Assembly: GCA_018806915.1 (NCBI GenBank)
Contig: JAGKQI010000045.1
Coordinates: 1,605,629 to 1,669,628 of the forward strand
Direction of reading: 5' to 3'
Length of the DNA stretch: 64,000 nt
Source: Phytophthora colocasiae
Taxonomy: Eukaryota; Oomycota; Peronosporomycetes; Peronosporales; Peronosporaceae
Shown piece by piece: positions 85 to 46,833 of this stretch. Both the position numbers and the translations under genes were made by a program. The notes under the pieces were generated by a model. The model saw nothing but the letters and a program-made list of their open reading frames with translations, made no database searches and had not been told where the DNA came from. The stretch's first letter is position 1, and every line of letters begins with the position of its first letter.

Positions 85-105
85 TTTTACTCATTCTACT
101 TTACA
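85..105 (+). promoter_or_regulatory. Possible oomycete initiator for channel gene 1
   Basis: The block around 90-98 reads CTCATTCT and is followed by a pyrimidine/A-rich stretch. This resembles the oomycete initiator (TCAYTYY-like) that marks transcription starts. It lies about 165 bp upstream of the first in-frame ATG of the channel gene. A similar TTCATTCT lies upstream of channel gene 2. This is a short-motif match only; no transcript evidence is available. Another TCATTTTCC lies at about 45-53 and could serve instead. Confidence 0.3.
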
Positions 106-243: not shown

Positions 244-264
244 ATGGAATTCACAGAGAAATGA
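244..264 (+). other. Six-codon upstream ORF overlapping the channel gene start
   Basis: An ATG at 244 opens a six-codon frame whose TGA stop (262-264) overlaps the channel gene's first in-frame ATG (261-263) as ATGA. If transcription starts upstream, ribosomes would meet this minicistron first and would have to reinitiate or leaky-scan. Seen directly in the sequence; any regulatory role is inference. Confidence 0.4.
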
Positions 265-3200
265 CTCGCAAAGTGTACGCGTCAGGGCCGAAGCAATCCA
301 CTGTGACGGTGACTGGGCCCCCAGTTGGAAATTGCTCTACTGTTTACGTCCCTAAGAGAGCAACAAGGTATCCAAAGCGCATATTCTTGAAGTCGTGGCA
401 GCAATTCTGCCGGCGAACATTTGCACCAGTTGAGAAGGTATACAAACGTTTATCGTGGACAACTCGGCAGACAATTCGTGTGGGAATTAGTCTCTACGCG
501 TTGGTATACATTTTCCTCTCGGTTCCGTTCCGACTAGCGTTTTATTACAATCCGTACGGGAAACATGAGGCCACTCACGTTCATCATTGGACTGCAGAGC
601 TTACGGTGTTTGCAGTATTGGACGCTGTGGCAGACTTGATCGGGGCTATCGAGTTTCTTCGCTTCTACCGAATGCAAAGAGGCCTGATATCAAGATTTAT
701 GAGCTTTGATCCCAGAGTTCTATCGCGAGCTGACTTCCAAGTTAATAGAATGCTGGTGCGTGGGTCTTCATTCAACAATCTACAGAGAGGAAAGACCAAG
801 TGGACACTGGCGTCCATTGGGAAAGCAGCCACAGAACCAGGAAACAGTGCAGACGACTCCATTTCGCAACGAAATTTTGTCAGGGAGCGGAAGGCACAGT
901 TTGCGCTCGAAATCATTGCGTTGGTGCCGGTGGAGATCATTCCTTACGCTTCAGGAACGTTCAATTCTTTGCATCTGGTTCGGATCACCAAGTTATGCCG
1001 GCTTTATCGTCTTCAGCAATGTGTGGAACGAATCGCTAAGATCTACTCGGATCGGACTTGGATTCAGCACATTTCCTCCACCGGTATCGACAGCTTGGTA
1101 CGGAACATTGGACTCTGTGCAGGTCTGTGTCACTGGGTTGCTTGCGGATATATGATGATCGCTCATGCACAATGTGGAATTTCCCTCGAAGCCTGTGATG
1201 AACGGATAGAAACTAGCTGGGTCGTGAGAGATCGCCTTTTCGGCGCAACGGTGACTCGGAAGTACTGCCGGACGTTGTATTGGGCGTCTCGAATGCTCGT
1301 GTTGCTTGGTTATGATGACGTTACACCCGTTTCAGATGCGGAGACGGTGTACGCAGTACTCGTGAACGTCTTGGGGGCGCTTTTCGGGTCATCACTTTTG
1401 GCCACTTTCCTCTTCATTTTTCGCTTTCGGAACGCTCGATACGCAGCGTTTGCCACGCATATCGACAACGCGCGAGAGTATATGAAGTCGCAGAACATTC
1501 CTCGTGCTTTAAGACGGCAAGTGATCTCGTATTTCAATTACTCGTGGAATACCCACCACAGTTTGGACAGCGAGGAGGCGTTGCACTTGATGCCGAAACA
1601 TTTGCAATCCAAAGTTGTATCAACCTTGAAGGCTAGTCGTATTAAACAAGTCTGCTTCCTTGTGAAGGAAAGCGTCGAGTTCATTAACCTCCTTGCAGCT
1701 GCACTGGCGCGGCGCGTTTACTCCCCCATGGACCAAATTATCGAGCCCAAGTTTAACGCGCAAATGTTCTTCGTAATTCGGGGTAGAGTGGCACTTTCGG
1801 CTTTCAATGGCTCAAATCCGAAGGAGTGCCACACTGGAGACTTTTTTGCAGATACCTGTTTACTTTTCCCAGAGAAGTTCGAAGAGAAAGCGATCGCCAA
1901 GACTTTCTGCGAGCTCTACGTGTTGGCGAAAGCCAAATTTGACGATACGGTGAGTGACTTTTACCGTGAGACTGCACCGGAAGTAAGAGCTCGAATGGCT
2001 GAGATCCACGAGAAGCATACAATTCAACTGCGCAAAACCAAGAAACTACTGGGAATGCGAGCTCGAGGTGCAAGCGGAAATGGAGCATCGTTCGGGGGGA
2101 GCCCTCACAGTCTCGCGACTGATACTTTGACGCATTTGCATCATAAAGCGGGCTGGAGGTTCCCTGGTTCCTCCTTCCGGGTATATTGGGATGCAGCACG
2201 GTTGTTCGCTACCATTTACGTCGCCTTTGAGGTTCCGTATTACTCTGTTTTCGTCTCCATGACCGAAGACCAGCGTATGTTTGGGGAGCAGCCTGTAATG
2301 GGGCTTCGGTACACCACCACACTGCTTGTTGAGGTTCTTTTTGGGGTTCATATCATCCTACGCTCGCGTTTTCTGGTGCATTTAGATCCTATCGTGATGC
2401 TAACGGTAGACGACCCGGAGCTGATCTTTGCTGCGTACAAGGCCCATGGATTTTTCCCGGATCTTATCGCATGGTTACCTATTGGAATTATTTTAGAATC
2501 ACTGGCAACAGCCTACGGACAACAATACGCATCAATTGCTCGCCTACTGCGTCTGCTGCGACTACGGGAGGTCCCTGAATTACTCTGGAATGTCTGTGAC
2601 TACTACAGTGTGAGCTCGAAAGCCCACCTTGTGATTTCTTTGATCCTTGGAGTAACGTTCATGCTGCACGTGGTGGGCTGTGTGTGGTTTGAAATGGCGT
2701 GGATACCACACGGAGAAACGTTGGATGCTGCTAAGGAAAGTACCATGCTCACAATGACTCGAGGCGAATGTTTACACCAGGCTACACTGTTTGGCAATTG
2801 TTCCTGGGTTATGTTTGACTGCTACGCGAATATTGGCGAAGCTTTCCCAGCAGAAGATCCTGAATCGATGTATAAAGCTTCTTTTGCGTACATGCGGTCA
2901 GTGTATTGGGCCATTGTGACTCTCACAGCAGTGGGTTATGGTGATATTGCAGCATACTCCACAGCAGAGAGTGTCTTTGCCGCTTTCTGGATCTTCATCG
3001 GTGGGATTATTAATTTCGGAGTTGTGGGTGCAATGTCAAGCACTATTTCGAATGCTATGGCCCCACATCACCATCATATTGAAAAACTCAATGCTCTGAA
3101 CAGTATTCTTGAGCGTATGGATATCTCCGAGAAGCTGAGCACTGAGATCCGACGCTTTTACCACCACGAATTCACCGAACGCAAGAGAGCTTATGAATCT

Positions 3201-6200
3201 CAATTACTATCGCATTTACCAGACCATCTTTGCTACGAGATCTCGTCCATGCTGCACTCTGAAGCTGTGAAGAGTGTGGCACTCTTTGATTCCGCTAGTA
3301 TCGAATTTCTCAAGGAAGTTACGGGGAAATTCCGTCACCGAACATACCAGAATGGGGATACTATTTGTCTTGAAGGGAATATCTGTCGCGAGTTCCTAGT
3401 ACTTTTGCACGGCAGTAAAGTGAACGTCTTCTTTCGGTCGAGGAAAGTTCCCATTCGTGCTCTTCAAGAAGGGGACTGCTACGGGGTTAATTCGTTCTTG
3501 CTACGGCGTCCACACTCAGCAACGCTCTCAGCAGCCTCGCTTGTTCACGCTTCGGTAATGACTCGAGAACAATTCGACGTCATTCAACGGAAGTTTGAAG
3601 ACGATTTACGTGACATGAAAGAGGAAGCACAAACACTTTGGATCGAGCAGCAGCGGAATATGAAGCGGATCGTACATAATCTTGAAAGGCTGAAACTACA
3701 GCCGCACATGATGTCAACTGCAACGCTATTTTATCAAGGAGATACCTCTGTGAATGCAATTAGCGCTGGAAAGGAGGCTAAAGTGGAGCGAGATGTTCAC
3801 GCAACCCGTAACAGGATCGAGAGCCTATGGCATGCAGTTATCACGTCCTGGAACGTGTATAACGCTGTGTTCGTGATCTTACGGATCTGTTTCCACTCCC
3901 ACTTACACTATTCCAACACCAGTATTTGGGTGACTGACCTCTGTTGTGACGCATGCTTTGCGGCAGATATTTATCTGCGGTTATTTTATTTCGGATGCCC
4001 TGAAGCTGGTGTGGACAACTTAGTAAACCGACTGGAGATGGACAGACAATTCCTTCGCAGCTCAGCATTTAGATGGAATATTGTGGCATCCGTGCCGATC
4101 TACATCCCGTACTCAAGTGGTTCAATGGCTACAAGTTTAGCGCGATTACCAAGATTAATCCGGTGTCTCGATCTTGTGGCGTACTTGGATGACGTGATTG
4201 TGCAGATTCAGCAGCGTTTTGCGTCGCATAACGTTTATGCTTATCTGAGTCCTGCTAAATTGATGATTATTCTCGCATTGGCGGCGCATTACGTGGGTTG
4301 CATCTTTTTCCTCATTTCGGAGAACGAGTGCCACCATGTGGAGCGCTGCTGGATGGAACATGATCACATGCTACACCAGTATCATCATTCTGTGCCAATG
4401 TTATACGCAAAAACGTTTTATTGGGCAATTACGACGCTTTTACTCGTTGGTTCTCGTGAAATTGTTCCGAGGGATACGGCAGGGACATTATGGACGAGCT
4501 TCACGTGTTTGTGCTGTACATTCATCATCGGCCACATTGTTGGAGAGATTTCGGAATTAATTCTCGAGCTCGGAAAGGAAACAAAACAGTATAAAGCTCG
4601 GATTGCCAGCTTTGACAGCTTTGCAAAGGAACATGAGCTGCCTGAAGGGTTGCGCAAACGTGTCGTCTTCTTCTTCCGCCTCCAGTTTGAGCATACCAAA
4701 GGCTTGGATATGCATCATACGACCCACGATTTATCCGCCAATCTTCAGCTTAAATTCATGCTGGAAATTTACGGCCACTCGATCGCGTTAATGCCGATCA
4801 GCCGCTTCCTGACATCTTCGCAAGTAAACAACCTCGCGTTGCGTCTCAAATCGGAGTTGTTTATCCCCGGAGATAATATCCTAGTGGAAGGGACCTTCGG
4901 GAGTCGGTTGTGCATCCTACGCAAAGGCCTGGGTGCTGTCTTTTGGTCCAGCTCAGTAACGAACGTTACAGTCTTGATGGAGGGGGCGTTGTTCGGCGAA
5001 GTGGCTTTCTTTCTCTCTGGTCAGCGAAGACTCGCCACTGTGCGAGCCACCACATCGTGCGAAGTGCTCTACGTCATTAAACATGACTGGCAGGAGCTGT
5101 GGACGACTACGGGTGATCTCTCGGATACGCAGGTGCAGAAGCACGCACTGCATGCGATTTTGGATTGGGTCCATGTTCGATTGTACAGGTATCAGAGATC
5201 CTGTCTGCGTATTGCGAATAAAGCTAAACGGTTGCTAGCTGCACGTCATCATGCCCCAACCAGTCTCCACGCGACAGCAGCAGCCGCTACGGGTACACTC
5301 CGGGCGAAAACAAGACTTTCCGCCGTATTATTGAGCCACCACGACCCCAGCAACCCCCATCTGACATCTTTCCATGCGCCGCCAAAGCCAGTGTTGACTA
5401 AGCGCCTCTCGATATCATCGGAAATGCAGCTCCTTGAGCGGAAAACGAGGTATATTCAGGCCAAAACCGAAAAATGCGCTAAGAAATTTCACCCAGCTAT
5501 TGAGGCCATGCAAGCCCATCGACGGTCGACCTCCATCATGTCCGGAAGGAGTCTACGATCCAGTGTCACTCACTCGAGTAAGGGAAGCACAGCGAGTGGA
5601 ATGTATCGCAGCACGATTGGAGACCCTGTGGCCCCACTTTCTCACAGTAACAGCGCGTCAGGGACGGATATCCGCATGCTGCAGTTTATGGTGGACATCA
5701 GTCCGATTAATAAGCTTGTGCGTGAATGTCTTTCTGATGAGCATCTTCGAGCAGTGGAGAATGAATGTTGGACGCGGTTCAAACTACTGTCATCATCACA
5801 GTATATTGTGAATAGATTGTTGGAGGAGTTGGCGCCGAAGGAGTCGACGTTCATGCGCATGGGGATTTCTGGCGCAGCAGAGCAGCGGACTCAGATCAAG
5901 ATCAATCCTACTCGAGGCAAACTGGTTCGGACTCGATCGTTTCGATATGATGATGTTACTCATAGGAAACAAAGAGTACACAGCCTCGCACTGGAAGCCT
6001 CACCCAGTAAACAATTGAGCGGACCCAATACGGCGAAGAAGTGGAAAGCTGCTGCTATGGCTGCCTCCCCGAATCTAGGCTCCATACTGTCGAAAGAAAA
6101 CGGAGGGATGCGTAATCGACGGTTTTCTACTGCTGCAATTGCACCTCAAGCCCCATTTAAACGAGTTGCACCCCCCAAATCGGAGCAAGCGGCTCGGTTA

Positions 6201-8537
6201 ACGCGTATGCTACGTTGCCGCTCTCTCCCTCAATTCGACCGAAAATTCTTCGACCAAATCCGAGAAGAAGATGGCCAGTTGTCTATGAACACGTCGCAAT
6301 CTGGAATCGACTTTGAAATTCTACAGCGGTGTCAACGGCCGGAGTATTCGACACACCTCACGCTGTTTCATCAATATCGAACCTGGAAAGACCAACGACG
6401 ATCTGTAGTTGTACCAGACCCATCGAAGAAGGCTTGGTCTCCTTCAACACGTGAGCCTGGAGCTGGAATAGATCATCGATCCACCATTGTAGGTTCGAGG
6501 CTGCAGCTCTCCAGCCAGCAAGCGCTTCATGCCGCTAGAATTGAGCTTCAAGCCAAGGAATTTATCAAGATGGTCAAGCAGATGGGCAAAGGTTGGGACG
6601 TTATTATGCTGTTGGTGGCTACTTATCACTTGATAGTTACGCCGTTCAAAGTGTGTTTCTCCCACGATCTCTCTAAGATGTCGAGCGAGTCATTGCATGG
6701 CTGGTCGGGGTTTGAGATCTTCTTGGATTGTTTGTGTGTCTTTGACGTGGTGTATAAAATTCGTAATAGCTCGACGGCTCACGAAGGAGGGATCACAACT
6801 ACTGCAAACACTCGTCGTCGACGTGGTTTTCGTGATGCATTATTGAATCCAGTGATACGGACGGATATTTTCGCGATGCTCCCGCTCGAGCTCCTCTTAC
6901 TATCAGGGAATATTCGCGTTCCCTTGCCATATGCTTCAGGCCACGGAGAAGTGGAGATATCATGGTGGACAACTTGCTGGCTATTACGGATGAACCGGAT
7001 GTTTCTAGTCGGTCGAATCGAGCCGTTGTCGGAGCAGCTCTTCCAGTTTATTATCTACGACCGGAAAATACAGGTTAACGAGGCGTTTCTCTATTTTGTA
7101 AGAGGATTGCTGTCGTGGCTTACGATGGGTCACTTGCTCGCCTGCATTTGGTTTCTGACGAGCGATCTGGGTTTTTATCACTACGGAACATCCTGGCTTT
7201 CTACTTCTGGAATGCTTACGTTTATTGGCGAAATCCCTGAAGTTGAAGAACATGGGAGACGACTGAATCAAGTGCTCTCGGGCTTCTCATTAGAAGTGAT
7301 TTGTCTCGATCGGAAGTATCTCCGCTCTCTTCTCTTTTCTCTGGAATGCATCTCCACTTTATTTTCTGGGGATATTCTCTCTATGAATCCAGCGGAGCTC
7401 TTGGCAGAGATTGCGATTACATTGTGGAGTATTTACATCTACGGAGCGCTAGTAGGCGCTCAAGGAGAGCTGCTAGATTCTCGTGCGAAGCGAGAGGCTG
7501 CGTTCGAACAAACATTGGGAGAATTACAGCATTATTTAGTCCAAAACGATGTTCCTAAAGGGATCAAGCGCCAGGTTAAAGCCTACTATGCACGATTGTG
7601 GCGAAGACGAAAGGGTGAAGCTGAATTCGCCGCCGTTGAAAAGGTCTCTCGAGCTTTGTATGAAGATGTGGTGTTATCGACAGCACGTAATTTTGCCATA
7701 CAGGTCAAAGTGTTTCAAGCTCTCGATGAGCAGTTTCTACGTGCTTTACTGGTGTGTTTGGAGTATGTGGTGTGCTCCGAAAACGAGGAAGTCTTTGTAG
7801 TAGGTGACATGGATCGCAATATGTATTTTATCGCACATGGTCGAGTCTCCGTTCGATGGGGCTCCAGTGAGTCAATACGGGAAAGAGGAGAGTTCTTCGG
7901 GGAACTGGCGTTGCTTTATGGTATCCCCAGACTGGAAACTTGTGTGGCAATTAGTGTGGCGGAGCTGTATCGGCTAGACCACGAGCCGTACGAGAAATTA
8001 CTTCGTGAATTCCCAGAGTATCGAGCACGTAACAAATTGGCCTGGACTACTCAGCCTTCTGGGTCCATTCGAGACCGTTCCATCATGGAAGAAGCTTTAC
8101 GTTGTTTCCGACAATTCTCTCCTCTTGGCGTGGCTGCCAATGGTAAAACGCAAGGACCGACATCACTGAATATCAGTACGTTAGTGAGCATAGCTGAACG
8201 AGTGGATGCCCAACTGCCGCACTCGTACATTTACCGCTCTGCGATGGAGTTGCTGTCGAGACTGAGCAAAGTGGACCCATTAGAAGCTAAGGACCTCTTT
8301 CTTAAAAGTCGAGACGGGGCACGAAAACAACTCAAAGCAGCGTTGGGAGTTGTCACAGCACGAGAAGACCCGGACGAGGTTCGGAGTTTCAACTCACGGT
8401 GTCCGTCGCCACGAACTGAAAAGGATACTGAGAGGCACAGTGACAGTTTGGAGCAATTGGAAGCAGCAGTGGCGGAGCTATCGACACCGTCTACCATAAC
8501 GAAGTCACCATCTTGGCGACTTATTGAAGAGCAGTAG
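261..8537 (+). CDS. Four-repeat cyclic-nucleotide-gated-type ion channel (copy 1, intact)
   Basis: Intronless gene of about 2,758 codons from the ATG at 261; the open frame reaches further 5' without an ATG. It should be a membrane cation channel. Four complete CNG/HCN-like units follow each other, each with hydrophobic S1-S6 segments, an Arg/Lys-spaced S4, a pore loop, a C-linker and a cyclic-nucleotide-binding domain (CNBD). Pore signatures are GYDD (350-353), canonical VGYGD (892-895), GSRE (1397-1400) and LFSGD (2368-2371). CNBDs lie near 482-562, 1026-1110, 1532-1613 and 2502-2580. III keeps FGEV (from 1578) with Arg-Arg 1589-1590, and IV keeps FGEL (from 2546) with Arg 2557. I and II have FAD and YGV instead and lack the Arg-Ala-Thr turn. 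A Ser-rich linker of about 480 residues separates units III and IV. It is about four times the length of a usual CNG subunit, so one chain could form a pseudo-tetramer, as in CNGK channels of sea urchin sperm. Paralogues lie at 31333-39354 and 39595-48943. Confidence 0.9.
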   Translation: MTRKVYASGPKQSTVTVTGPPVGNCSTVYVPKRATRYPKRIFLKSWQQFCRRTFAPVEKVYKRLSWTTRQTIRVGISLYALVYIFLSVPFRLAFYYNPYGKHEATHVHHWTAELTVFAVLDAVADLIGAIEFLRFYRMQRGLISRFMSFDPRVLSRADFQVNRMLVRGSSFNNLQRGKTKWTLASIGKAATEPGNSADDSISQRNFVRERKAQFALEIIALVPVEIIPYASGTFNSLHLVRITKLCRLYRLQQCVERIAKIYSDRTWIQHISSTGIDSLVRNIGLCAGLCHWVACGYMMIAHAQCGISLEACDERIETSWVVRDRLFGATVTRKYCRTLYWASRMLVLLGYDDVTPVSDAETVYAVLVNVLGALFGSSLLATFLFIFRFRNARYAAFATHIDNAREYMKSQNIPRALRRQVISYFNYSWNTHHSLDSEEALHLMPKHLQSKVVSTLKASRIKQVCFLVKESVEFINLLAAALARRVYSPMDQIIEPKFNAQMFFVIRGRVALSAFNGSNPKECHTGDFFADTCLLFPEKFEEKAIAKTFCELYVLAKAKFDDTVSDFYRETAPEVRARMAEIHEKHTIQLRKTKKLLGMRARGASGNGASFGGSPHSLATDTLTHLHHKAGWRFPGSSFRVYWDAARLFATIYVAFEVPYYSVFVSMTEDQRMFGEQPVMGLRYTTTLLVEVLFGVHIILRSRFLVHLDPIVMLTVDDPELIFAAYKAHGFFPDLIAWLPIGIILESLATAYGQQYASIARLLRLLRLREVPELLWNVCDYYSVSSKAHLVISLILGVTFMLHVVGCVWFEMAWIPHGETLDAAKESTMLTMTRGECLHQATLFGNCSWVMFDCYANIGEAFPAEDPESMYKASFAYMRSVYWAIVTLTAVGYGDIAAYSTAESVFAAFWIFIGGIINFGVVGAMSSTISNAMAPHHHHIEKLNALNSILERMDISEKLSTEIRRFYHHEFTERKRAYESQLLSHLPDHLCYEISSMLHSEAVKSVALFDSASIEFLKEVTGKFRHRTYQNGDTICLEGNICREFLVLLHGSKVNVFFRSRKVPIRALQEGDCYGVNSFLLRRPHSATLSAASLVHASVMTREQFDVIQRKFEDDLRDMKEEAQTLWIEQQRNMKRIVHNLERLKLQPHMMSTATLFYQGDTSVNAISAGKEAKVERDVHATRNRIESLWHAVITSWNVYNAVFVILRICFHSHLHYSNTSIWVTDLCCDACFAADIYLRLFYFGCPEAGVDNLVNRLEMDRQFLRSSAFRWNIVASVPIYIPYSSGSMATSLARLPRLIRCLDLVAYLDDVIVQIQQRFASHNVYAYLSPAKLMIILALAAHYVGCIFFLISENECHHVERCWMEHDHMLHQYHHSVPMLYAKTFYWAITTLLLVGSREIVPRDTAGTLWTSFTCLCCTFIIGHIVGEISELILELGKETKQYKARIASFDSFAKEHELPEGLRKRVVFFFRLQFEHTKGLDMHHTTHDLSANLQLKFMLEIYGHSIALMPISRFLTSSQVNNLALRLKSELFIPGDNILVEGTFGSRLCILRKGLGAVFWSSSVTNVTVLMEGALFGEVAFFLSGQRRLATVRATTSCEVLYVIKHDWQELWTTTGDLSDTQVQKHALHAILDWVHVRLYRYQRSCLRIANKAKRLLAARHHAPTSLHATAAAATGTLRAKTRLSAVLLSHHDPSNPHLTSFHAPPKPVLTKRLSISSEMQLLERKTRYIQAKTEKCAKKFHPAIEAMQAHRRSTSIMSGRSLRSSVTHSSKGSTASGMYRSTIGDPVAPLSHSNSASGTDIRMLQFMVDISPINKLVRECLSDEHLRAVENECWTRFKLLSSSQYIVNRLLEELAPKESTFMRMGISGAAEQRTQIKINPTRGKLVRTRSFRYDDVTHRKQRVHSLALEASPSKQLSGPNTAKKWKAAAMAASPNLGSILSKENGGMRNRRFSTAAIAPQAPFKRVAPPKSEQAARLTRMLRCRSLPQFDRKFFDQIREEDGQLSMNTSQSGIDFEILQRCQRPEYSTHLTLFHQYRTWKDQRRSVVVPDPSKKAWSPSTREPGAGIDHRSTIVGSRLQLSSQQALHAARIELQAKEFIKMVKQMGKGWDVIMLLVATYHLIVTPFKVCFSHDLSKMSSESLHGWSGFEIFLDCLCVFDVVYKIRNSSTAHEGGITTTANTRRRRGFRDALLNPVIRTDIFAMLPLELLLLSGNIRVPLPYASGHGEVEISWWTTCWLLRMNRMFLVGRIEPLSEQLFQFIIYDRKIQVNEAFLYFVRGLLSWLTMGHLLACIWFLTSDLGFYHYGTSWLSTSGMLTFIGEIPEVEEHGRRLNQVLSGFSLEVICLDRKYLRSLLFSLECISTLFSGDILSMNPAELLAEIAITLWSIYIYGALVGAQGELLDSRAKREAAFEQTLGELQHYLVQNDVPKGIKRQVKAYYARLWRRRKGEAEFAAVEKVSRALYEDVVLSTARNFAIQVKVFQALDEQFLRALLVCLEYVVCSENEEVFVVGDMDRNMYFIAHGRVSVRWGSSESIRERGEFFGELALLYGIPRLETCVAISVAELYRLDHEPYEKLLREFPEYRARNKLAWTTQPSGSIRDRSIMEEALRCFRQFSPLGVAANGKTQGPTSLNISTLVSIAERVDAQLPHSYIYRSAMELLSRLSKVDPLEAKDLFLKSRDGARKQLKAALGVVTAREDPDEVRSFNSRCPSPRTEKDTERHSDSLEQLEAAVAELSTPSTITKSPSWRLIEEQ

Positions 8538-8711: not shown

Positions 8712-10022
8712 TCAGACAATCTCTTCTTCGCGAACCTTGACACAGAGTGGCACATTGCAGTTCGGGGTCGAGCAGTTCATGGCATGGAACGCAAACAACT
8801 CCGCTGTGAGCTGAGCAAGTCGGTACTTGCGCCACTTCTCGCTATGCGACGCCCAGCATACACTCCGCAGGAAGCGCTTCATGTGCGCACAGAAGGCGTA
8901 GAACTCCAAATCCGTGCACTTGATGTTGTCGCAGTTGCAGGCATGGATTAACAGCGCATTGCACTTCTCGGGGTCTGCTTCCAACGCCTGTATAATCTGT
9001 GGACAAGTACAACATCTACGATAAGAGCACAATCCTGTACGGTACGACGCTACCACAACGTACCGGAATCGCCGTGGGGTCGTTTCCACCCGTTCCATTA
9101 TCCTGTCCATTTTCAGTTGTCGGCGCAATGCCACTGGGTGCCGCTGTCACTGTTACTGTTGTGTGATTACTTGCTGGAGTTGCACTAGCTTGCGCCGTCC
9201 CTGAATTTGCAGCAGAGCTTGCATCGGCAGCAGCCGTCTGCACCTGTTCTGCTTTCACAGCCACTTCAAACGCAGGATACTTGACGCTGCACTTCGGACA
9301 GTACCACATGCCCTCTGGCACCTTTGGCAGCGGCGGCTTTAGGCAGAAAATATGATACTCTGCGTTGCACTTGTCGCACAAGACGATCTCACTTTCCCGT
9401 TGCGAGCTGTTGCATAACTCGCAGGCCGTCTGCTCCTCTTCTTCTTCTCTCTCCTCCATTTCCACATCCATAGAATGATCCACGTCTGGTTCTTCTTGCT
9501 CCTGATGTTCTTGTACAGCCTTCAATGGCTGGACAGGTTCCAATTGCTGCTCCTGGTGCTGCGATGTGTCCGATTCGAAGTCACTGAGCTCATCCATCGG
9601 GTTCACCTCTCGAGTGTCCATCTCGCTGGACGATTCACTGGTATAGTCTCGGATGTTAATAAATTGAGGCGTAGATCCCCCTGAACGGCTGCCATTGACG
9701 CTGCCATTGACGCTGTCATTAGCCACGACGGGTGGTGTTGTGGTGCCCATACTCGTTGTTGGCAGCGCTAAAAAATGCCATTAAAATTAGGCTTGCCGAT
9801 GACACAAATGCGAATTAGTGACAAAAATGGATACGCACGTTCGGCCTTGACTGCTGGTGCGGGCGGCGCAGACTCGTAGCGAGCGCCACGTCGAGTGTCC
9901 ACAGGGGGCGCTGGTTGACCCGGGAACTTGGAGATCGTGAGCTTCACGAAGGTGTCGATGCGCTGCAGGTCGCAGTCCTGCGCTACTGCGTCCTCCCAGT
10001 TAAAGCGAATGCGCGCAGTCAT
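8712..10022 (-). CDS. PHD-finger and TAZ zinc-finger protein, three exons
   Basis: Spliced model on the minus strand: exon 1 10022-9839, exon 2 9767-9064, exon 3 8996-8712. Introns are 71 bp (GTGCGT...TTTTAG, phase 1) and 67 bp (GTACGT...CCACAG, phase 0), giving 390 residues. The start is the first ATG in the open frame. After a Ser/Glu-rich acidic stretch, residues about 177-221 form a PHD finger (C4HC3, ending WYCPKC), a reader of histone tails in this family. Residues 297-390 form a TAZ-type zinc finger with regular Cys/His spacing, including HACNC, CAHMKRFL, HAMNC and CNVPLC. TAZ fingers bind transcription-factor activation domains in CBP/p300, but no bromodomain or acetyltransferase domain is present. 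The likely role is a nuclear chromatin adaptor (inference). It is convergent with channel gene 1. Confidence 0.82.
8997..9063 (-). other. Intron 2 of the PHD-TAZ gene
   Basis: 67 bp, donor GTACGT and acceptor CCACAG, phase 0. It lies directly before the TAZ exon. The TAZ-only gene at 30860-31299 has a phase-0 intron at the same place, and its TAZ exon has the same length (285 nt with the stop). Confidence 0.75.
9768..9838 (-). other. Intron 1 of the PHD-TAZ gene
   Basis: 71 bp, donor GTGCGT and acceptor TTTTAG on the minus strand. Splicing joins a codon split after its first base, giving proline, and keeps the reading frame into the acidic region before the PHD finger. Confidence 0.7.
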
Positions 10023-15602: not shown

Positions 15603-17408
15603 CTACTCTGTTGATAGTGCTTGGCCGTTGAGAGAAGGGCGACCAGAAGATTGAGCGTTCATGGACACCCGGGCACGTTTATTCGGTCCACGGTAAACAA
15701 GAGTATTTTGTCCAGATGTGTCCATGCTGCCAACAGATCCCAACGCAAACAGCAGATGCACGCAACATCCAGACTTGTAGAAGGCGTTGCACGGGCAAGT
15801 TCGCGCCTCAATATCGACTTCCCAGCCCGAATCCAGCACGTCCAGGGTCTCCATGCGTGCCGTCTCGGCACCTAGCCGAGCTGAAACAGGCAGATCTTCG
15901 TGGTATCGCTTAGTAAGCACGTTGTAGATCCTCGTGCTTGGCAATGCAACGACGCGGATGACTTCGTGCCTCGTATCTGTTGATGTAGCGCCCAAGAGGA
16001 ACTCAATGCTTGTTTTAGCTGGTTTGTATTCTAGGAGCAACCCAGCACGTGAGAGCGCTTTAGTACGGCGCACCAAGCGATCATCAAACGCAGGGGCCGT
16101 CAGGAATGGCTCAGCAGCCACGCTCTTGGCGCTGCACAGGGTTAACAGCCTGTCCACCAGGGAACCCATCTTAAGTTTCCGCCGGAGTGTGACATCTCGT
16201 TTAATAGACGCATTAAAAGTCTCACACGGATTGTTTGTAGCCGCAAATCCACTTGGTGTGTGGAAACACTGCCATCGCCACGTCTTCGGGTGCAGCCATA
16301 CCTTTTTGAAGTAGGCAGCGAATTGGCACATCTGCTCCGATAGCCCTATTTTTCTTGCACTTGTTGCAGGCGCTGGTGAAATGCAGCTTCGCCGCGGGAG
16401 AAGTGCAGCTCGTGAACATGCCGAAGAATAGTAGCAGCCGTGTTTGAGTCTAGAGCTCTGGTCTTTTCGTACACTTTCTTAGCAACATGGAAGTAGCACA
16501 TCAGGACTTGAAACAAGCCATCACCGCGGTCGAAGACCTCTTGGAGTGCATTCCACTGGGCTCCATCTGCGTCGCCCATTGCCCACTTCACACGAAGCTG
16601 TCTCCCCGTCACCGTAGCATAAGTTCGCGCAAGCAGTGCGAGAACTTCCGTGTAATGGGGCTGCTGCTGCTGCGAGACGATGAATATCGCCAACAAATGA
16701 AACCGACGCGCTCTGTCAGTGATACCAACCACAATAACCGGGTAGCCAACTTGGGTAAGCTTGTAGGTAGCGTCTAGATGTAGCACGAACGAGCTGGGAT
16801 CACGATCGGCCTGAAGCAGCAGTTTTTTCGTGCTGATGCCCAGCACAAATGGGTCAGCATCACTGCCATTTCCTACCACCGGCATGCCTGCACCATCTGT
16901 ACGCCACGCGAACGTGAATGCCGCCGTTTCCTCCTCTTGGCCTGTAAATCCTGATTCTCGTGCTGCTTTTCGGACGGTCGCCATTAAGTCGCTGCCACCG
17001 AGGTGCTTGGAAACGTAATGGTGGACGAACCGCTGAACCACAGACAGGGCTCTCGCTGAGGCGGAAGCGCTGGAGGAGAGACTGCCAAATTCTGGCTGGG
17101 CGCAAACCTTGCCTAGCCCAGTCACGAACCATGACCTTCATCTCAGGTGTAAGCCAGGGCCGCGTGGGGGCACGCACTGGCGTCACATGAGAATTGAGTT
17201 CGTCAATGCTGACGACGTCCACCAGCTGACACCAGCGAACGCGTCCTCGCCACGGACAGCGTAATGCAGGTGATGCCGCTGTACATGCGGCGCAGTTACA
17301 GTGCAACCGCTGCGTGCGCATCGCGTGGGGAGATGCATCGCTGCAAATGGAGCACTGCCCAAGGTCACTTTTGGTAACAGCAAACCTTTTAAAAGTCTCA
17401 AGTAGCAT
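15603..17408 (-). pseudogene. Mutator-like (MULE) transposase, two frameshifts
   Basis: Read from an ATG at 17408, three overlapping frames make one transposase. The N-terminal part has a Cys/His-rich finger. The middle (about 16900-16350) has the MULE core with catalytic Asp in HLDATYK and Asp in MGDADG. The last part has the catalytic Glu in NNPCETFN, and near 15760-15710 a SWIM finger (CPC...CVH). The frame changes near 17055 and again at 16346, where a run of five A in the minus-strand reading appears one base short. Host-like FHY3/FAR1 proteins share this architecture, but the broken frame points to a dead transposon copy. Terminal inverted repeats were not found by eye. Confidence 0.8.
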
Positions 17409-24608: not shown

Positions 24609-26873
24609 GCAAGTCGATCGTGTAGGCAGCACCGTGCCTACTCAGGACCTTAAAGGGTCCAATGAAGCGATGCTTCAACTTGTTGCTCACCGTGGAGCTA
24701 ACAGTGTTAAGAGGTAGGTTCCTAGTGTCGAGTAGCACTAAGTCACCCACATTAAATACACTTAAGTTTCCTCTCCCATGTTGGTCTGAGTACTCCTTTT
24801 GCTTGTCCTGTGCGAGTGCCATTGCATCTCGCACCCGGCTGATCACATTCAGCCTGTTGCCGACAAATGTCGACAACTTCTTCCGCAACGCGGCTGGTTC
24901 CACACGGAAACCTGGGAGGAAAGCTCTTTCCGAGCCTCTCCCCACTTACTCGAAGCCGCGGTGCCCCCACCCAGTGTGAGCGGCACCTGGGGGTTCCGAA
25001 GCCCGTTCAAGTAGAACGGCGTGAACCCCGTTGACGCGTGTACCGCGTTGTTGAGTGCAAACTCAACCATAGGCAGCTGCGCTGACCAAGAGCGCGGCGC
25101 CTCAGCGCAAACACTGCGCAGCACGTCCTCAACCACTCGGTTGACGCGCTCAGTCTGACCATCGGTCTGCGGATGGTCCGCTGTTGACATCGTCAACCGT
25201 GTTCCAAGCAATTGGAACAGCGTTTTCCAAAACGCAGCGGTAAACCGCGGGTCGCGGTCAGAGACAACAGTCTCAGGCAACCCGTGATAGCGGAAGACGC
25301 TATCAAGGAACAACTTCGCAGTTTGTTCCCCGGTAATGGTCTCAGAGACCGGAGCAAGATGCACCATCTTGCTCAACCGGCATACAAACACCACAATGCC
25401 GGTGTTCTTCTGGTCATCGGCCGGAAGGCCGAAGACAAAGTCGAGACTCATCGACTTCCAGCAGTCCAGTGGGACTGGCAGGCTCTGCAGCGGAGCCGAC
25501 GCGTGCCCCGCTGGCTTCACGCGCTGACATGTTTCACATGTCTTGATGTACTTGGCCACCCACTTGTACATGTGGGCCCACCAAAACATCAGAGAGACCC
25601 CATGATAGGTCTTCTCTCGGCCCAAGTGGCCACTCGAAGGCACATCGTGTGCCTCGTGAAGTATATCATACTTCAGATCCTCGTCGTTCGGAACAACGAC
25701 CCGCGGAGGATCCCCGGGCTCCACCCGATAGTGGAGCAGGCCATCGGCCCACTCATAGCGGTGGAGCCGTGCCCGCTGTCGAGGCGTAAGCCATTCGACC
25801 TTGGCATCCGTGCCAGCGGACAAATACCGCACAATAGGGGCGAGGGCGTCATCGTCCCGATACGCCAAGCGTATTCGATCGTAAAGATCCGTCGTGGCCG
25901 GACTAATATGAGCGAACTCATAGTCGGGCCTGCGCGACAAAGCGTCGGCAAGCGTGTTGAGCTTGCCAGGCTTGTATTCAACGCGGAAGTTATACTCCGC
26001 GAAGAATGACAGCCAACGCGCCATCCGCTGCGATAAGTGCGGCGTATGGATGGCTGTCCGCAAGGACGCGTGGTCCGTATAGACCACAAAGGGCCTTGAG
26101 CCCAGAAGATGCACCCTGAACTTGACAAGGGCATACTTCATCGACAAGAGTTCCTTGTCGTGAACGGGATAATTCCGTTCGGCAGCCTTCAGCTGCCTGG
26201 ACTGGAACGAGATCACCCTATCTCGTCCCTCAGCGTCCTGTTGCAATAGCGCACAGCCAATTGCATAGTCGGAAGCGTCACAGACAACGCTAAACGACTT
26301 GGCATCGTCCGGCAACGCCAGGACGGGCGCGCATTGCAAGCTCGCCTTGATGCTATCAAAAGCATCCTGGTGCTGGCGCTCCCAGCACCACTCGGCCTCC
26401 TTCTTCAGAAGGTCCGACAAAGGCTTTGCGAGTCCCGCATAGCCAGCACTGTACTTGTGCAAGTAGTTGGCGAAGCCCAACCACTTCCTCAGGTCCTTCT
26501 GTGACCGAGGAACAGGCCATGCCGCAATGGCTTTGACCTTGTCAGGATCCGCTCGGACCCCGACGCTGCTGCTGACGAAGCAGCCGAGGACCTTAATCTC
26601 CTCAGCTGCGAAGACGCACTTGTCGATGTTGGCATAGAGCTTGTTAGCTCTCATGACCTCAAACACTCGACGGAGGTGCTCTCGATGCACCTCTATAGCC
26701 GTCTTGCCTCCCTCGGCACGGCTATGGACGAATATATCGTCAAAGTACGTCTGCGTGAACGCACGCAAAGGTCTAAACAACTGTGTGACCAAGCGATTGA
26801 AGGTCGCTGGTGCGTTGGATAGACCTTGTGGCATTACCAGCCACTCCCAGAGCATACCGCTCGGCGTGCTCAC
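24127..26873 (-). pseudogene. Chromovirus pol: RT core, RNase H and integrase
   Basis: Two overlapping minus-strand frames. Frame 26873-24849 carries the RT palm with YFDDIFVHS, thumb, RNase H (beginning around FSVVCDASDYA with its catalytic Asp, and HDKELLS), the integrase zinc finger (H...H...CETC), and the integrase DDE core (LDFVFGLP, VSDRDPRF and the Glu in QTDGQTERVN). The continuing frame 24945-24127 carries the integrase C-terminal GPY/F-type region (GPFKVLSRHG, HPTFYVGRLK). The frame changes near 24900, and an in-frame TAA at 24127 ends it before the chromodomain. Catalytic residues are all present, so decay is by frameshift only. Confidence 0.85.
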
Positions 26874-31332: not shown

Positions 31333-34300
31333 TTATTTGATTCGCAAAGCTCGACTCTTTTCAAAAATATGAAGCCGTTCATTAGCCTGAGAGCTGTCGC
31401 TATCATCCTCCGTGATGACGTTACGCATCAAATGCTTTCGAGCTCCATCTCTAGCTTTCAGAATGAATTCTTTGGCTTCTAGTGGATGCAGTTCATGAAC
31501 TCGAGCTAACATTTTCATAGCTGCGGTGTGTACGAAAGAGAACTGCAGTCGAGACTCGATGTTTTGGGCATTTGTACCCGCCACTTTGGCCATGCTGGGT
31601 CTTAAAGCCAGGGAGCTGTGTAGCTGTCGTTGAGGTGCGGTCCGATCAGCATCAGCAAATATCGTCCAAGATAATTTATTCCGCGTGCGATATTCCGGAT
31701 ATTCTCGAAGCAAACGCTCGTACGATTCGTGATCCAGTCGATACAATTCAGCTACAGTGACAGCCACACACGTTTCAAGCCGGGAAATACCATACAGTAG
31801 CGTTAACTCGCCGAAATACTCGCCTCTTTCTCGGGTATAGTCTCCAGTACCAGTTTTCACAATAATACGTCCTTGGGCAATGAAATACATACTGCGATCC
31901 ACGTCTCCTACCACGAAAATCTCCTCATTTTCAGAACACACGACGTATTCCAAACAGACGAGTAAAGCCCGCAAGAAATGCTCATCCAGCCCTCTAAAAG
32001 CGCGCACTTGAGCCACAAAATTATGAAGAGTAGTGAGCACGACATCTTCGTAGAGAGCTCGGGAAACGTTCGAAATGGCTGCGAATTCATGTTCTCCGCG
32101 ACAGCGACGCCATAACCGTGCATAGTACGTTTTAATATGACGTTTAAGAGGTTGTTGCACGCCGTTCTGTACGATATAATGCTGTAATTCTCCCAAACTC
32201 TGTTCAAAAGCAGCTTCTCGACGAGCACGAGAATCTAAAAGTTCCGCTTGGGCACCAACAAGAGCCCCGTAAATGTAGATACTCCATAGTGTGATGACGA
32301 TCTCTGCAATAAGCTCCAATGGATTCATGGAGAGGATGTCACCGTAGAATAGAGTGGAAATACATTCCAATGAGAAGAGCAGAGACCGAAGGTACTTGCG
32401 TCCGAGAGAAACACTCGCTAGGTAAAACGTGGAGCTGTTTTCACTCAGCATTCTAGCGGTATGTTCAGCTACTTCCGTTCCGCTGGAGATGTACGTTAGC
32501 ATTCCGGAAGTAAAAAGCCACGATGTTCCGTAATAATTGAACCCGATCTCACTTGAAAAGAACCAAATGCACGCTAGAATATGGCCTGTTGCTAGATACG
32601 ACGCCAATCCACGAGCGAAATACAATAGCGAGTCGTCCACAGGCATTTTCAGGTCGTGGATTAAGTATTGGAAGAGTTGTTCAGTCAATGGCTCAATTCG
32701 ACCGATTAAAAGCATCCGATTCATTCGTAATATCCAGCGAGTAATCCACCACGAAGCATCCACTGATGAGTGCAAAGAATTCGACATTGGTAGACGGACG
32801 TCAGTTGCAAGAAGACAAATTTCCAGTGGAATCATCGCTAATAGATAAATTTTGAGCTCTGGATTACTCTCCAAAGCACGTTGAAGAGGATTTTTCAATG
32901 TATTCGCAGTTGAAATCACATTTTGCTGCATTTCCCAAGCCCGACGCAGTTGATGAATCACGTCCACCACACAAATAGCATCCAAGGCTATTTCAATGGC
33001 AGACCAATTGTACAAATGTGTCAACGGGAGTTCAACCAAAGCGCGAGAGAAACTCACTTTGAAAGGAGTGACCAGGAGATGATAAATCGCCACGACAAGG
33101 ATAACGAGATCCCAAAGCTTACCCAAATTCTTCACGTGCTGAATAAATTCCTTGGATTGGATATCTGTAGCGGCAGACAAAAGCGTTGGTTGGCTAGGAA
33201 GCTGTAGCATAGATCCCATAGCAGCTACCCTTGGGCGTCCGATACGACGAACCCCTAACAGATCGCCTGTCAGCGAGAATGTATGGTCTCTAGTCTTTCG
33301 GGGCTGAGTAGGTTTCGATGACAATCCTAACGGCACAACTGTGGCCTGAATACTACCTCTCCATTGCCTGTATCGATGATACCAATGAATTTGAGCTTGA
33401 TATTGAGGTCTCTGGCTGCACTGAAGAATGTCGAAATCGATTTCGGATCCTCCTTTCTTCGAGTTGGTAATTATCCATCCACGAGATTTATCGTCAAAAT
33501 ATTCACTTGTAACTGGAGGGAGAGAATGACACCTGGTTATCCCCCTCCATGTAGCTCCTGATTCGGGTTTCGACGATACTGGGGCGTTTTGAGCCTGTGC
33601 TTTAGTGTACGCCGTGTCTACCGAAAACCTCCGTCTTTCACGGATTACGCCAATTTTTTGTGGGGCAACTTTGGAGTTTTTTGCATGCTTTGCTTGGGTG
33701 TTTGTAGCTAGATCGTTATTCTGCCGCGAGTTTCTCGCCACAAAAGACACAGACCGTCTTGGTTTTTTCAGGGATTTTTTTATTCGTGAGCGACGTTGAT
33801 CTGGGCTGAGCCCTGATGGAAGAAGTGTTTCAAGAAGTTTGCTGGTGGCGTGTTGAGCTTCTGCCAACAGTCTGAAACGAGCCCAACACTCTTGTTCCAT
33901 AGCGTAAATCCCGATGGAGCCGAGCGATTCGCGAACGTGTTTGTTGATAGGATTGAGATCCACCATAAACTGCAACAAGCGAATATTAGCATTCTTGGCT
34001 CGTCCGCTCAGTAAAATAGACACATCTGCATTCCCACTTTGCCACAATCCAGCTGAATTCGCCGTCCCTCTACTTGGGTTAGCAGTTCGTAACGAACTCT
34101 GAATCGATCCAATAGAACTTCTTATGGAAGCCAGAAGCGAAGACTTGTGCATCTGTAGTATCCCAATCTCAGAACTATACATCTTGGAACAGGCATCAGT
34201 CTTGGCCAGCAGATATTCTGCTTTTTTCTCCAGTAATTTTGCTTCGGGGGATGTGAATAATTTACGCAGATCCGTCTTCGACGGCTTGCGAGGTGGAGTA

Positions 34301-37300
34301 GCAATTCTACTTAACCACTTACTTTTTATCTTGGCACTCTCCAATCCGTTTCGTTTCGTATCATCTGTTGCAGATAAATCCTCGTTCACGGTGTTAGGGT
34401 CTAGTAAACGTTTGCAACGACCTGCAATACGTAAACTCGCTCGTTGATATCGCTGAAGACGACTACTAACCCAGCCGAGAATGGCGTGCATGGCGTGTTT
34501 CTGGATTTGACTATCCGACGCATTGTTACTTGTCGTCCATAACTCTTGCCAGTCGTTTTTAGATATGAACAGTACTTCACAGAACGTAGTAGCACGTACA
34601 GTAGCTAATCGTCGTTGGTTCGGAAGGAAGAAGGCAATCTCACCGAAAAATGCGCCTTCCATTAAGATCGCAATGCTTGATACAGATTTTGTCCAATATG
34701 CGGCCGCTAAGCCTTTGCGTAGCGTGCAAAGGCGACTGCCGTACATGCCTTCCACTAGGATATTATCCCCTGGGATAAAAAGCTCCGATTGGAATCGCAA
34801 CGCGAGGTTATTCACTTGAGAAGATGTAAGGAAGCGGCAGATTGGTAAATTCGCAATGGCGTGTCCATAGATTTCTAGCATAAGCTTGAGACGAAGGTTA
34901 GCGGATAAATCACGAGTACAGCCACGCAGATCACTCCCTTTTGTGTGTTTAAACTCTTCACGAAAGAAAAATCCGACACGCTCTCGAAGTGTAGGCGGCA
35001 GATCATGACTTTTCGCAAAGTTCTCGAAATTTAGGATACAGTTTTTGTATTGCTTCTCCTCTTTCCCCAGTTCCAAAATCAGTTCCGAGATTTCACCTAC
35101 AATGTGTCCAATGATGAACGTACAGCACAAACACGTAAATCCTGTCCATAATGTCCCCAATGTATCTCTAGGTACACTTTCTCGAGATCCAACGAGTAAA
35201 AGCGTCGTAAGTGCCCAGTAAAAGGATTTTCCGTAAAGCACCAGTACTGCGTGGTGATACTCGTGAACCATGTGGTCGTGAGCGATCCAGCAGTTATCCA
35301 CATGTTTGCATTCATGCTCGGAGATCCAGAAGAAGATACAACCCACGTAATGTGCCACAACTACTAGAATAATCATCAATTTCGCAGGACTCAGGTAGGC
35401 TGAAACATTATGAGCCGCGAATTGTTGCTGGATATACACAGTAACATCGTCCAGATAATGCCATAAATCCACACATCGGATCAATCTCGGAAGTCGAAAC
35501 GAACTCGCAATTAATGATCCACTGCTAAATGGGGAGTACAAAGGCAGCGACGCTAGTAAATCCCATTTCAACGTCGAGCTCCGAAGGTATTGTTTGTTGA
35601 GTTTTTTCCGCTCCAAAACGTTTAAACTTCCATCCGGATTGTCGTAAAGCCGCAGGTAAATATCCAACGCAAAACAAATATCACAGCTTAAATCCATCAG
35701 TAAAATAGCACCACTTACACGACTGGAGAGATGTAAATGTGAGTGGAAGCAGATTCGGAAGATGACAAACGTGGCATTGTACAGATTCCAGAACGCGATC
35801 ATCGTCTTCCATGTAGCTTTTAATATTCGCTGACCTCCTCCTGTTCTCCAGTTTGTTTGGCGCATTTTATTTGGGAGAATAGCGCTCTCTCGCTGGTAAA
35901 ATAGAGTTGGAGTCTGCATCGAATGTGGCTGTAACTTCATCTTCTCCAGATTGGCACTAACCCGACTAAGCAACAGGAGCTCATGGCTCGAAAGCACCTC
36001 AGCTTCATCCTTCATATCATTAACGTCGTCTGAAAACTTGCGCTGGATGTTATCGAACTGGTCACGAGTCATAACAGAAGCGTGTACGTGCGAAGCAGCT
36101 ACCAGCGAGGCAGTGTATGGCTTTCGTAGTAAAAATTCGCTTACACCGTAGCAGTCTCCGCCGTGCAGTGCACGTACAGGGACCTTACGTGAACGGAACA
36201 ATAAATTCACTTTGCTTCCAGGTAAAAATACGAAAAAGTCTCGACAAACGTCCCCTTCAAAGCAAATTGTCTCGCCATTTTGGAAACTCCGGTGCCGAAA
36301 TTTGCCAGTAACCTCCTTTAGAAACTCAATACTCGCGGAATCGAAGAGTGAAACGCTTTTCACAGCGTCTGAGTGCAGCAGGGACGAGATTTCGTAGCAT
36401 AATTGATTCGGCAGGTGCGACAAAAGCTTGGATTCGTACGCTTTCTTCCGACCGGAGAACTGCTGGTGGTAAAACCGGCGGATTTCTGTACTTAGTTTCT
36501 CGGTTATCTCCATTCGTTCCAAAGCAATATTGAGCGTATTGAGCTTTTCCATGTGATGATGATGCGTTGCTAGCATGTTGGATATTGTGCTTGACATTGC
36601 GCCTACGACACCAAAGTTGATAATTCCTCCTAGAAAAACCCACAAGGCAGCGAAATAACTCTCTGCAGTTGAATAAGCCACGATATCACCATACCCAACC
36701 GCTGTAAGTGTTACTACTGCCCAATACACCGAGCGTAAGTAGGCAAACGAAGCCTGGTACATAGAATCTGGATTCTCTGAAGGGAAAACACTTCCGATAT
36801 GAGCGTAGCAGTCAAACTTAACCCACGTACAGTTCTGATAACGAGTTGCTTGCTCCAGACATTCAGAGCGTGTCATACCAGCCATAACGGTGCTCAAACT
36901 TGTAGTAGCCGCACTTTCTTCGGAGAAATGAGTCATTTGGAACCAGATACATCCTATAACGTGAAGCATTAGCGAAACACCGAGAATTAAGGACACCACC
37001 AGACGCATTTTGGAACTCGTTCCGTAGTAATCACTTAAATTCTGAAGTAAATGAGGGATCCATCGTAACCGAAGTAGTCTCGCTAGTCGAAAGAAAGAGG
37101 AGTATCCATGAATACTAGCGATAGGGAGAGATTCAAGGACAAGACCAACTGGGACCCACGCCAGAAAGTCGAGATACATGCCGTTTTTCTTGTAAGCCGA
37201 GAAAATGAGACTTGGATGCGCAACATTAATCATTACGGTCGGTTCCAAATAGGCGAAGTATCTCGACCGTAGGATAAAGTCAACACCGAATATCACTTCA

Positions 37301-39354: not shown

Positions 39355-39594
39355 GTTGTCACTACGCAACTGTCAGCACAGCTGCATCAATTGACCAGAA
39401 TGAACAAATAAACACAGCGACGAGGTCGGTTTTCTTTGAGCAAGAACTCCAATTTTAGGAGGACCTCGTAGTCTTGAAACTCCTTGGACATCTTCTATAT
39501 TAACCGCAACAGACCATCACTTGGACTTGGGAACTACAAACATATCGAAACGTTGATATGAAATACCGTATTCAAAACGAATTTAGTTACTACC
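39355..39594 (-). promoter_or_regulatory. Upstream region of channel gene 2 with initiator-like motif
   Basis: 240 bp separate the end of the broken channel gene from the ATG of gene 2. On the minus strand TTCATTCTGGTCAATT (about 39406-39391) resembles the oomycete initiator plus flanking region, 40-50 bp before the ATG. It is comparable in sequence to the CTCATTCT upstream of gene 1. Confidence 0.35.
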
Positions 39595-45500: not shown

Positions 45501-45697
45501 CTAACGATAGCGAGCATAGCGTTGTGGTCCATGAACGCGAAGTATCGACTTCGAAGAATCAGGTCAAGCGCAAAAAATGCCTCAACTATCGTTGTCACTA
45601 CATAACGTAAATCCAGCCCATAGTCCACAACGAACATGTGCTGGTCTTCGGTCATTGAGGTGAAGACAGCGAAGTACGGGACCTCGAAAGCCACGTA

Positions 45698-45726
45698 CAG
45701 CGGGTAGATTAAATGAGCGCCCACCC
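45698..45726 (+). repeat. Terminal inverted repeat, left
   Basis: 29 bp, begins CAGCGGGTAG and ends CGCCCACCC; perfect inverse of 46805-46833. Confidence 0.92.
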
Positions 45727-45813
45727 GAAAATTCATTTGATTCTGTATTGATTTTATGTTCCATACAAAAATGCAGTCAAACTAAATGTTGAAGTTCATC
45801 TTGAAGCACCTTT

Positions 45814-46804: not shown

Positions 46805-46833
46805 GGGTGGGCGCTCATTTAATCTACCCGCTG
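46805..46833 (-). repeat. Terminal inverted repeat, right
   Basis: 29 bp, perfect inverse of 45698-45726; followed by the TA target duplication. Confidence 0.92.

What the first reader, a model, noticed from the sequence alone, without database searches (positions are those of the whole stretch)
261..8537. Single-chain four-repeat CNG-type channel with four different pores
One 2.7 k-residue protein holds four complete S1-S6+CNBD units, enough for a whole channel. The filters are GYDD, GYGD, GSRE and FSGD, so only one of four is a standard K+ filter, and unit III carries an Arg where the permeation path should be. Known single-chain four-repeat CNG channels (CNGK of sea urchin and relatives) have K+-type filters, as far as I recall. 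This oomycete form would be a pseudo-heterotetramer with an asymmetric filter, comparable in logic to four-domain Na+/Ca2+ channels but built from CNG units.
Basis: partly seen in the sequence, partly recalled or inferred. Interest (0 to 1): 0.88.

Follow-up and report, generated by a model that had tools for sequence, protein, structure and literature searches.

The report
Single-chain asymmetric oomycete CNG channel
An oomycete (water mould) gene encodes what looks like a whole ion channel in one long protein whose four pore segments differ from one another in a conserved way, probably a separate invention of the uneven pore design known from sodium and calcium channels.

Summary
261..8537 (+) is one intact reading frame (2758 aa) with four Ion_trans + cNMP-binding units and filters GYDD, GYGD, GSRE, FSGD. 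It is one of a family: of 96 aligned rows of this type (two from the window), 67 carry all four filters, and 40 of 67 read exactly GYDD|GYGD|GSRE|FYGD. The window's FSGD in unit IV is a one-row variant. The Arg-bearing unit III pore is the best conserved of the eleven regions measured (median identity 0.82), so decay is unlikely. D352 (unit I) and R1399 (unit III), which would face each other in a ring, change charge on the same tree branches: rank 2 of 7022 acid-basic inter-unit pairs, Monte Carlo p about 0.001; a paired sign test was too small to be significant. CNBDs III and IV keep the cassette Glu and Arg (88 of 88, 72 of 75 rows); I and II never have the Arg. Repeats I-III are rejected as orthologues of CNGK repeats; IV is not. 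Best reading: an independently evolved, single-chain, cyclic-nucleotide-gated cation channel with a fixed asymmetric, probably non-K+-selective filter. Ring closure, conduction and ligand response are inferred, not shown.

The parts
261..8537 (+). Coding sequence of the four-unit channel (P0001, 2758 aa), no intron needed
91..97 (+). TCATTCT, same letters as the most frequent form of the Phytophthora initiator (INR) given in PMC3599244; about 165 nt before the ATG. Not tested for chance
438..2120 (+). Unit I (S1-S6, C-linker, CNBD), residues about 60-620
1308..1319 (+). Filter I, GYDD; D352 is the position-79 equivalent (KcsA numbering, recalled)
1836..1904 (+). Phosphate-binding cassette of CNBD I: acid kept (D 70, E 15, A 2 of 87 rows) but no Arg in any of 89 rows
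2148..3650 (+). Unit II, residues about 630-1130; long S5-P turret with three conserved Cys
2934..2945 (+). Filter II, GYGD, the only K+-type strand (GYG 92 of 92 rows)
3471..3539 (+). Phosphate-binding cassette of CNBD II, degenerate: Glu in 2 of 89 rows, Arg in 0 of 89
3738..5180 (+). [not shown]
4449..4460 (+). Filter III, GSRE; R1399 is the position-79 equivalent
4983..5054 (+). Phosphate-binding cassette of CNBD III, FGE and Arg (E1580 89/89, R1590 89/89)
5238..6590 (+). Long, poorly conserved III-IV linker (about 450 residues, median identity 0.35)
6603..8060 (+). Unit IV, residues about 2115-2600 (not modelled)
7362..7373 (+). Filter IV, FSGD here, FYGD in most of the family
7887..7955 (+). 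Phosphate-binding cassette of CNBD IV, FGE and Arg kept (E2548 74/75, R2557 72/75)
31333..39369 (-). Second, intact copy (2678 aa from the TTG that the ORF list uses; the first ATG is five codons later); filters GYDD|GYGD|GSRE|FYGD
39598..48961 (-). Third copy, broken in this window: two changes of frame without a gap and one intervening stretch of about 1.1 kb (pseudogene, intron or assembly error not told apart); relatives with longer models exist

Best explanation
A complete CNG-type cation channel made as one chain. The four units fold around one pore in order I-II-III-IV (inferred), so I faces III and II faces IV. The K+ filter has been remodelled differently in each unit and kept so: only unit II retains GYG. 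All four units keep an acid at the position after it (D, D, E, D), a four-carboxylate outer ring. At the outermost filter layer unit I puts an Asp opposite an Arg of unit III, likely as a cross-pore pair. I expect a non-K+-selective cation pore (Na+, perhaps Ca2+) opened by cyclic nucleotide on CNBDs III and IV, with CNBDs I and II structural. Shown by sequence: one chain, the filters and their conservation, the CNBD asymmetry. Supported by tree tests: separate origin from CNGK for repeats I-III. Inferred: ring closure, the D-R contact, selectivity, gating.
Against: No structure of the whole chain; two-unit models have modest confidence (pLDDT 69 and 71, pTM 0.65 and 0.62), unit I fits solved chains only loosely (rmsd 7-13 A), unit IV was not modelled, and no row with a range spanned both units. 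Counting all substitutions, the I352-III1399 pair is only in the top 1.0-1.2% of inter-unit pairs. Independent-pairs sign tests are not significant: 4 pairs, about 3 the same way, p 0.125-0.5; in reverse 7 pairs, 3 the same way and 4 without difference, p 0.25. The pair was chosen after its pattern had been seen. Six rows (P0078-P0082, P0091) keep R/K in III without an acid in I; P0020, P0023 and P0030 lose the base in III and keep the acid in I. CNBD I keeps an acid at the Glu column (D/E 85 of 87), so its loss of binding is an inference. No expression, current or ligand-binding data.
Confidence: 0.62

Rival explanations
1. An oomycete CNGK: K+-selective, cNMP-gated, with tolerated drift in three filters.
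For: Same 4 x (6TM+CNBD) layout; salmonid CNGK is found at E 1e-73; GYG is kept in unit II in 92 of 92 rows; the repeat IV clade with CNGK is not rejected (p 0.152).
Against: Three of four strands lack TVGYG-type letters family-wide; the odd unit III pore is the best conserved region, not drifting; AU tests reject joint clades for repeats I, II, III (p 5e-5, 0.006, 1.4e-4).
Confidence: 0.14
2. A pore-dead sensor: the D-R pair seals the filter and the protein works as a cNMP/voltage-sensing scaffold.
For: A cross-pore salt bridge could occlude the mouth; no conduction data exist; silent subunits are known among K+ channels (recalled).
Against: Pore regions of units I and III are the most conserved measured (0.77 and 0.82), all four outer acids are kept and unit II keeps GYG in 92 of 92 rows; a dead pore would be expected to drift. 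Some paralogues replace D/R by S/N.
Confidence: 0.15
3. The chain does not close its own ring but combines with other chains (paralogues, or a two-chain assembly).
For: Several paralogues lie close together (three copies in this window; five rows from Phytophthora lilii, all listed with contig length 96363); ring closure was not tested.
Against: 67 rows hold four units in one chain with filters that keep to their order; I-III charge covariation within a chain.
Confidence: 0.09

Closest known systems
CNGK channels (sea urchin, fish, choanoflagellates)
   Same: One chain with four 6TM+CNBD repeats; in sea urchin only the third CNBD is taken to be functional (passage of PMC4749565), and CNBD III is one of the two that look intact here.
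   Different: CNGK pores are GYG or GFG and pseudo-symmetric (passages); here the filters differ by unit. Repeats I-III do not group with CNGK repeats. The III-IV linker is about 450 aa.
[quoted passage not shown] text parts 1-4 of 5 read)
   Same: Tandem CNBD-channels in oomycetes.
   Different: Two repeats and TVGYG-type filters are reported; no four-repeat oomycete CNBD-channel is mentioned in those parts. Whether their P. infestans entry is a partial model of this family could not be checked (no supplement access).
Four-domain Nav/Cav/NALCN channels
   Same: Asymmetric single-chain pore with a basic residue in domain III among acids (DEKA, EEKE; passages of PMC6259924).
   Different: They have no CNBDs (recalled); here a basic-in-III filter sits on a CNG/K+-type scaffold, so the likeness would be convergent.
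CNGA/CNGB heterotetramers
   Different: Four chains; here the asymmetry is fixed in one chain.

Membership tests
CNBD-channel superfamily (CNG/HCN/KCNH-like) | 6TM with pore loop, followed by C-linker and CNBD, in each unit | tested here: met
   Pfam 4+4; the 60 PDB rows shown of 151 are CNBD channels or a CNBD piece; folds of units I-III, unit IV by Pfam only
CNGK | four 6TM-CNBD repeats in one chain | tested here: met
CNGK | GYG/GFG K+ filter in the pores | tested here: not met
   only unit II
CNGK | repeat-by-repeat orthology | tested here: not met
   AU rejects I, II, III; IV not rejected, p 0.152; CNGK-type repeats form their own group, support 94/93, not starred; groups were named after the tree was seen
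CNGK | K+ selectivity and cGMP or pH gating | not testable with these tools
   needs electrophysiology
Nav/Cav/NALCN four-domain channels | four 6TM domains without CNBD | tested here: not met
   four CNBDs
Nav/Cav/NALCN four-domain channels | asymmetric filter with a basic residue in one domain | tested here: met
   R/K at III-79 in 80 of 91 rows
Two-repeat tandem CNBD-channels | two repeats per chain | tested here: not met
   four repeats
Functional pseudo-tetramer | four P-loops around one pore | tested here: inconclusive
   two-unit models only; covariation is indirect

The most novel reading that the evidence does not exclude
A second, independent evolution of asymmetric single-chain cation selectivity, built on the K+/CNG scaffold: a conserved D (I) - R (III) pair across the pore mouth inside a four-carboxylate ring replaces the K+ filter, while CNBDs III and IV gate it. 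In logic it is convergent with the DEKA and EEKE filters.
Probability: 0.5. Interest if true: 0.86.

Novelty: new variant of a known kind. Interest (0 to 1): 0.74.

Why it matters
It has been written that CNGK channels stayed pseudo-symmetric and that only the sodium/calcium/NALCN lineage became asymmetric (PMC6259924, passages). This family looks like a counter-example with a different ancestry, so it offers an independent test of which filter changes a single-chain channel allows and whether a basic residue in unit III is a recurrent solution. It also supplies natural paralogues in which the D-R pair is replaced by neutral residues (S/N, N/N, S/T), a ready-made comparison. Every close relative with a name is an oomycete, so it may bear on the little-known electrophysiology of zoospores.

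Tried and rejected
Genome-wide copy count: the genome search 'own' was sent ten times and never answered, so copy number beyond this window is unknown.

Single-unit relatives: a search with unit III alone gave 7 hits among the 7997 candidates scored: five short or partial models (P0105-P0109, Phytophthora, Nothophytophthora or unnamed), a chlorarachniophyte ankyrin-CNBD channel and one weak fusion. P0105 (369 aa, on a 2377-base contig, Ion_trans but no CNBD listed) and P0106 (826 aa, partial) carry the GSRE filter. I read them as pieces of four-unit genes cut by short contigs, but did not prove that.

Whole-ring structure: impossible within 1200 aa. Models of I+II and II+III were made instead. 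The 50 rows shown by each of four fold searches are solved single-repeat CNBD channels; the two lists with ranges align one unit each. The Foldseek lists give no ranges; one row there (9l9u_A) has 881 columns at rmsd 46.5 A, which I take as meaningless. No four-domain chain is listed, which excludes nothing.

Covariation on all substitutions is not outstanding (top 1%). One search failed: I used the neighbouring columns 353/1400 by an off-by-one; corrected. The independent-pairs tests are underpowered. The tree is a quick LG+G4 tree and warns that long branches meet. In one search the test of all oomycete repeats as one clade did not finish.

dN/dS between copies 1 and 2 (NG86) is saturated: dS undefined in units I, II and the linker, 3.04 and 2.63 in III and IV. 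dN is 0.26-0.32 in units against 0.77 in the linker; only that contrast means anything.

Proteome: PPTG_06812, the P. nicotianae relative, is not named in the main text of the zoospore proteome paper PMC12223298 (find); supplements were not open. PMC5322657 (passages) says nearly all cyclic-nucleotide-related genes of P. [quoted passage not shown] I could not match its genes to this family.

Not-in-print check: nine paper searches over the CC0, CC BY and CC BY-SA papers, three of them not aimed at oomycetes, showed no title or abstract start reporting a four-repeat oomycete CNBD-channel. Each showed only its top rows (for example 20 of 921, 20 of 272, 12 of 69). Most subscription papers are not covered.

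Rows dropped: ten hits (P0102-P0111) before the alignment; P0083-P0089 left out of the 96 'core' rows as distant. Of 88 rows with both positions, 78 were left after removing near-duplicates at 97%, 73 after leaving out P0084, P0087, P0088, P0089 and rows under 1450 aa, and 71 for covariation after pruning P0083 and P0085. P0089's filter alignment is unreliable, and P0020's filters I and IV look degenerate.

Full report
What is there. The frame 261..8537 on the + strand begins with ATG, runs 2758 codons and ends in TAG. Pfam sees four Ion_trans and four cNMP_binding stretches. The four filters are GYDD (350-353), GYGD (892-895), GSRE (1397-1400) and FSGD (2368-2371). A protein search found 88 relatives; for example, six proteins from five named Phytophthora species align over the whole length at 61-72%. 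Named hits of that call come from Phytophthora, Nothophytophthora, Globisporangium, Pythium and Albugo; the only other named organisms are salmonid fish (CNGK) at far lower scores, and several rows are unnamed. No Saprolegniales protein is named in the hit lists, but the search depends on shared words and length. The window is most likely from a Phytophthora: copies 2 and 3 match a P. citrophthora protein at 94-97%, and P0001 matches a model labelled Phyca11, which I read as P. capsici, at 93% over 56%.

A family with a fixed asymmetric filter. After alignment, 96 rows of this type remained (two from the window, two being halves of P0090); 67 have all four filters, and 40 of 67 read GYDD|GYGD|GSRE|FYGD. 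Column counts: I-79 is D in 72 of 86, S 7, Y 4, N 2, T 1; II is G-Y-G in 92 of 92; III-79 is R in 78 of 91, N 6, T 2, K 2 and single Q, P and S (rows); IV is F in 71 of 76, then Y in 69, then G in 74. The acid after the filter is kept in all four: 87/87, 92/92, 91/91, 76/76. In unit II the residue at the usual inner Thr is A 67, G 12, T 10, S 3 of 92. The window's Ser in unit IV is unique among 76 rows. Conservation to P0001 (median over the other 66 complete rows) is highest in the unit III pore (0.82) and unit I pore (0.77), 0.69 and 0.68 in pores II and IV, and 0.35 in the III-IV linker. The turrets, as I cut them, differ too: 32, 64, 30 and 52 residues, with 2, 3, 2 and 0 well-conserved Cys. 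So asymmetry looks like a kept design.

A pair across the pore? If the units ring in order, I and III are opposite. Rows with both positions: 64 acid/basic, 8 neither, 6 basic only, 3 acid only, of 81. On a tree built without these columns and the two after each (73 rows), three separate groups (P0054/P0056/P0073; P0015/P0018/P0021; P0009/P0027) lost both charges together. Among 7022 acid-basic column pairs in different units this pair ranks second (tied with one other under one of two reconstructions); a branch-weighted Monte Carlo of 20000 draws gives 0.0007 and 0.00125. Against it: over all substitution types it is only in the top 1%; the sign tests on independent pairs are not significant; six basal rows have R/K without an acid; three rows lost the base alone; and I chose the pair after seeing it. 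I take it as moderate evidence for contact, and so for a ring inside one chain.

CNBDs. The cassette Glu and Arg known to hold the cyclic nucleotide (recalled) are both present in unit III in 88 of 88 rows and in unit IV in 72 of 75; in unit I in 0 of 87 and in unit II in 0 of 89. In unit I the Glu column stays acidic (D 70, E 15, A 2 of 87) but the Arg column is mostly Tyr or Phe; in unit II the columns are mostly Val and His or Tyr. Two apparently ligand-competent and two altered CNBDs are therefore family-wide. The sea urchin CNGK is gated by one cGMP at its third CNBD (PMC4749565, passage), so partial use of CNBDs has precedent. S4 segments of P0001, as I cut them, carry 6, 4, 3 and 3 Lys/Arg.

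Origin. In a tree of 46 single repeats oomycete repeats I, II, III and IV each form their own group (support 100/99 or better), the deep Albugo protein P0083 included, and 12 CNGK-type repeats form another (94/93). Four of these 12 come from P0085, an unnamed protein that I class as CNGK-type because it aligns with salmonid CNGK over both halves at 26%. Holding oomycete and CNGK repeats together is rejected for I (5e-5), II (0.006) and III (1.4e-4) when the metagenome row P0084 is included, and without it (0.007, 0.003, 0.004); for IV it is not (0.152). The groups were named after the tree was seen and long branches are present, so I call a separate four-repeat origin likely, not proven. P0083 (GFAD|AYGD|NYGD|SYGD) and P0084 (GYGD, GYGD, VIGD, partial) hint that the filters started K+-like.

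Known or new. Pozdnyakov 2020 (PMC7576140, parts 1-4 of 5 of the text) reports two-repeat oomycete CNBD-channels with TVGYG-like filters, and four-repeat ones from animals and choanoflagellates. Fux 2018 (PMC6259924, passages) states that CNGKs show no obvious specialisation of their domains and that only the Na/Ca/NALCN lineage is asymmetric, with sodium-selective forms carrying Lys in domain II or III. This family does not meet the CNGK filter criterion and carries its basic residue in unit III. Relatives exist in databases as hypothetical or 'cyclic nucleotide-binding domain' proteins, so the genes are known; the type was not found described in the open papers searched.

Function. Best commitment: single-chain, cNMP-gated, non-K+-selective cation channel. 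Expression of the P. infestans cyclic-nucleotide gene set, CNG channels among it, mostly in sporangia and zoospores (PMC5322657, passages) makes a zoospore role plausible; I could not tie that to this gene.

Noticed in passing
31333..39369 and 39598..48961 (-): Two further copies of the same gene in the window; the second of them is broken here. A P. citrophthora record (P0090, 5352 aa) has both as one protein model, probably an annotation fusion.
   Followed up: partly
P0083 (Albugo laibachii): A deep four-repeat relative with filters GFAD|AYGD|NYGD|SYGD, without the Arg in III.
   Followed up: partly
P0009, P0015, P0018, P0021, P0027, P0054, P0056, P0073: Relatives with neutral S/N, N/N or S/T at the D-R positions, i.e. 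possible differently selective sister channels.
   Followed up: yes
P0105 (369 aa, unnamed source): A short model with the unit III filter GSRE and no CNBD listed, on a 2377-base contig; probably a piece, not settled.
   Followed up: partly
P0059 (Phytophthora aleatoria): A four-repeat relative whose record also carries ankyrin-repeat Pfam domains.
   Followed up: no
24852..26873 (-) and 60853..63999 (+): Retroelement polyproteins: reverse transcriptase and RNase H, with integrase in the first and aspartyl protease in the second.
   Followed up: no
16349..17125 (-): MULE transposase domain.
   Followed up: no
9016..9750 (-): PHD-finger protein convergent with the channel gene.
   Followed up: no
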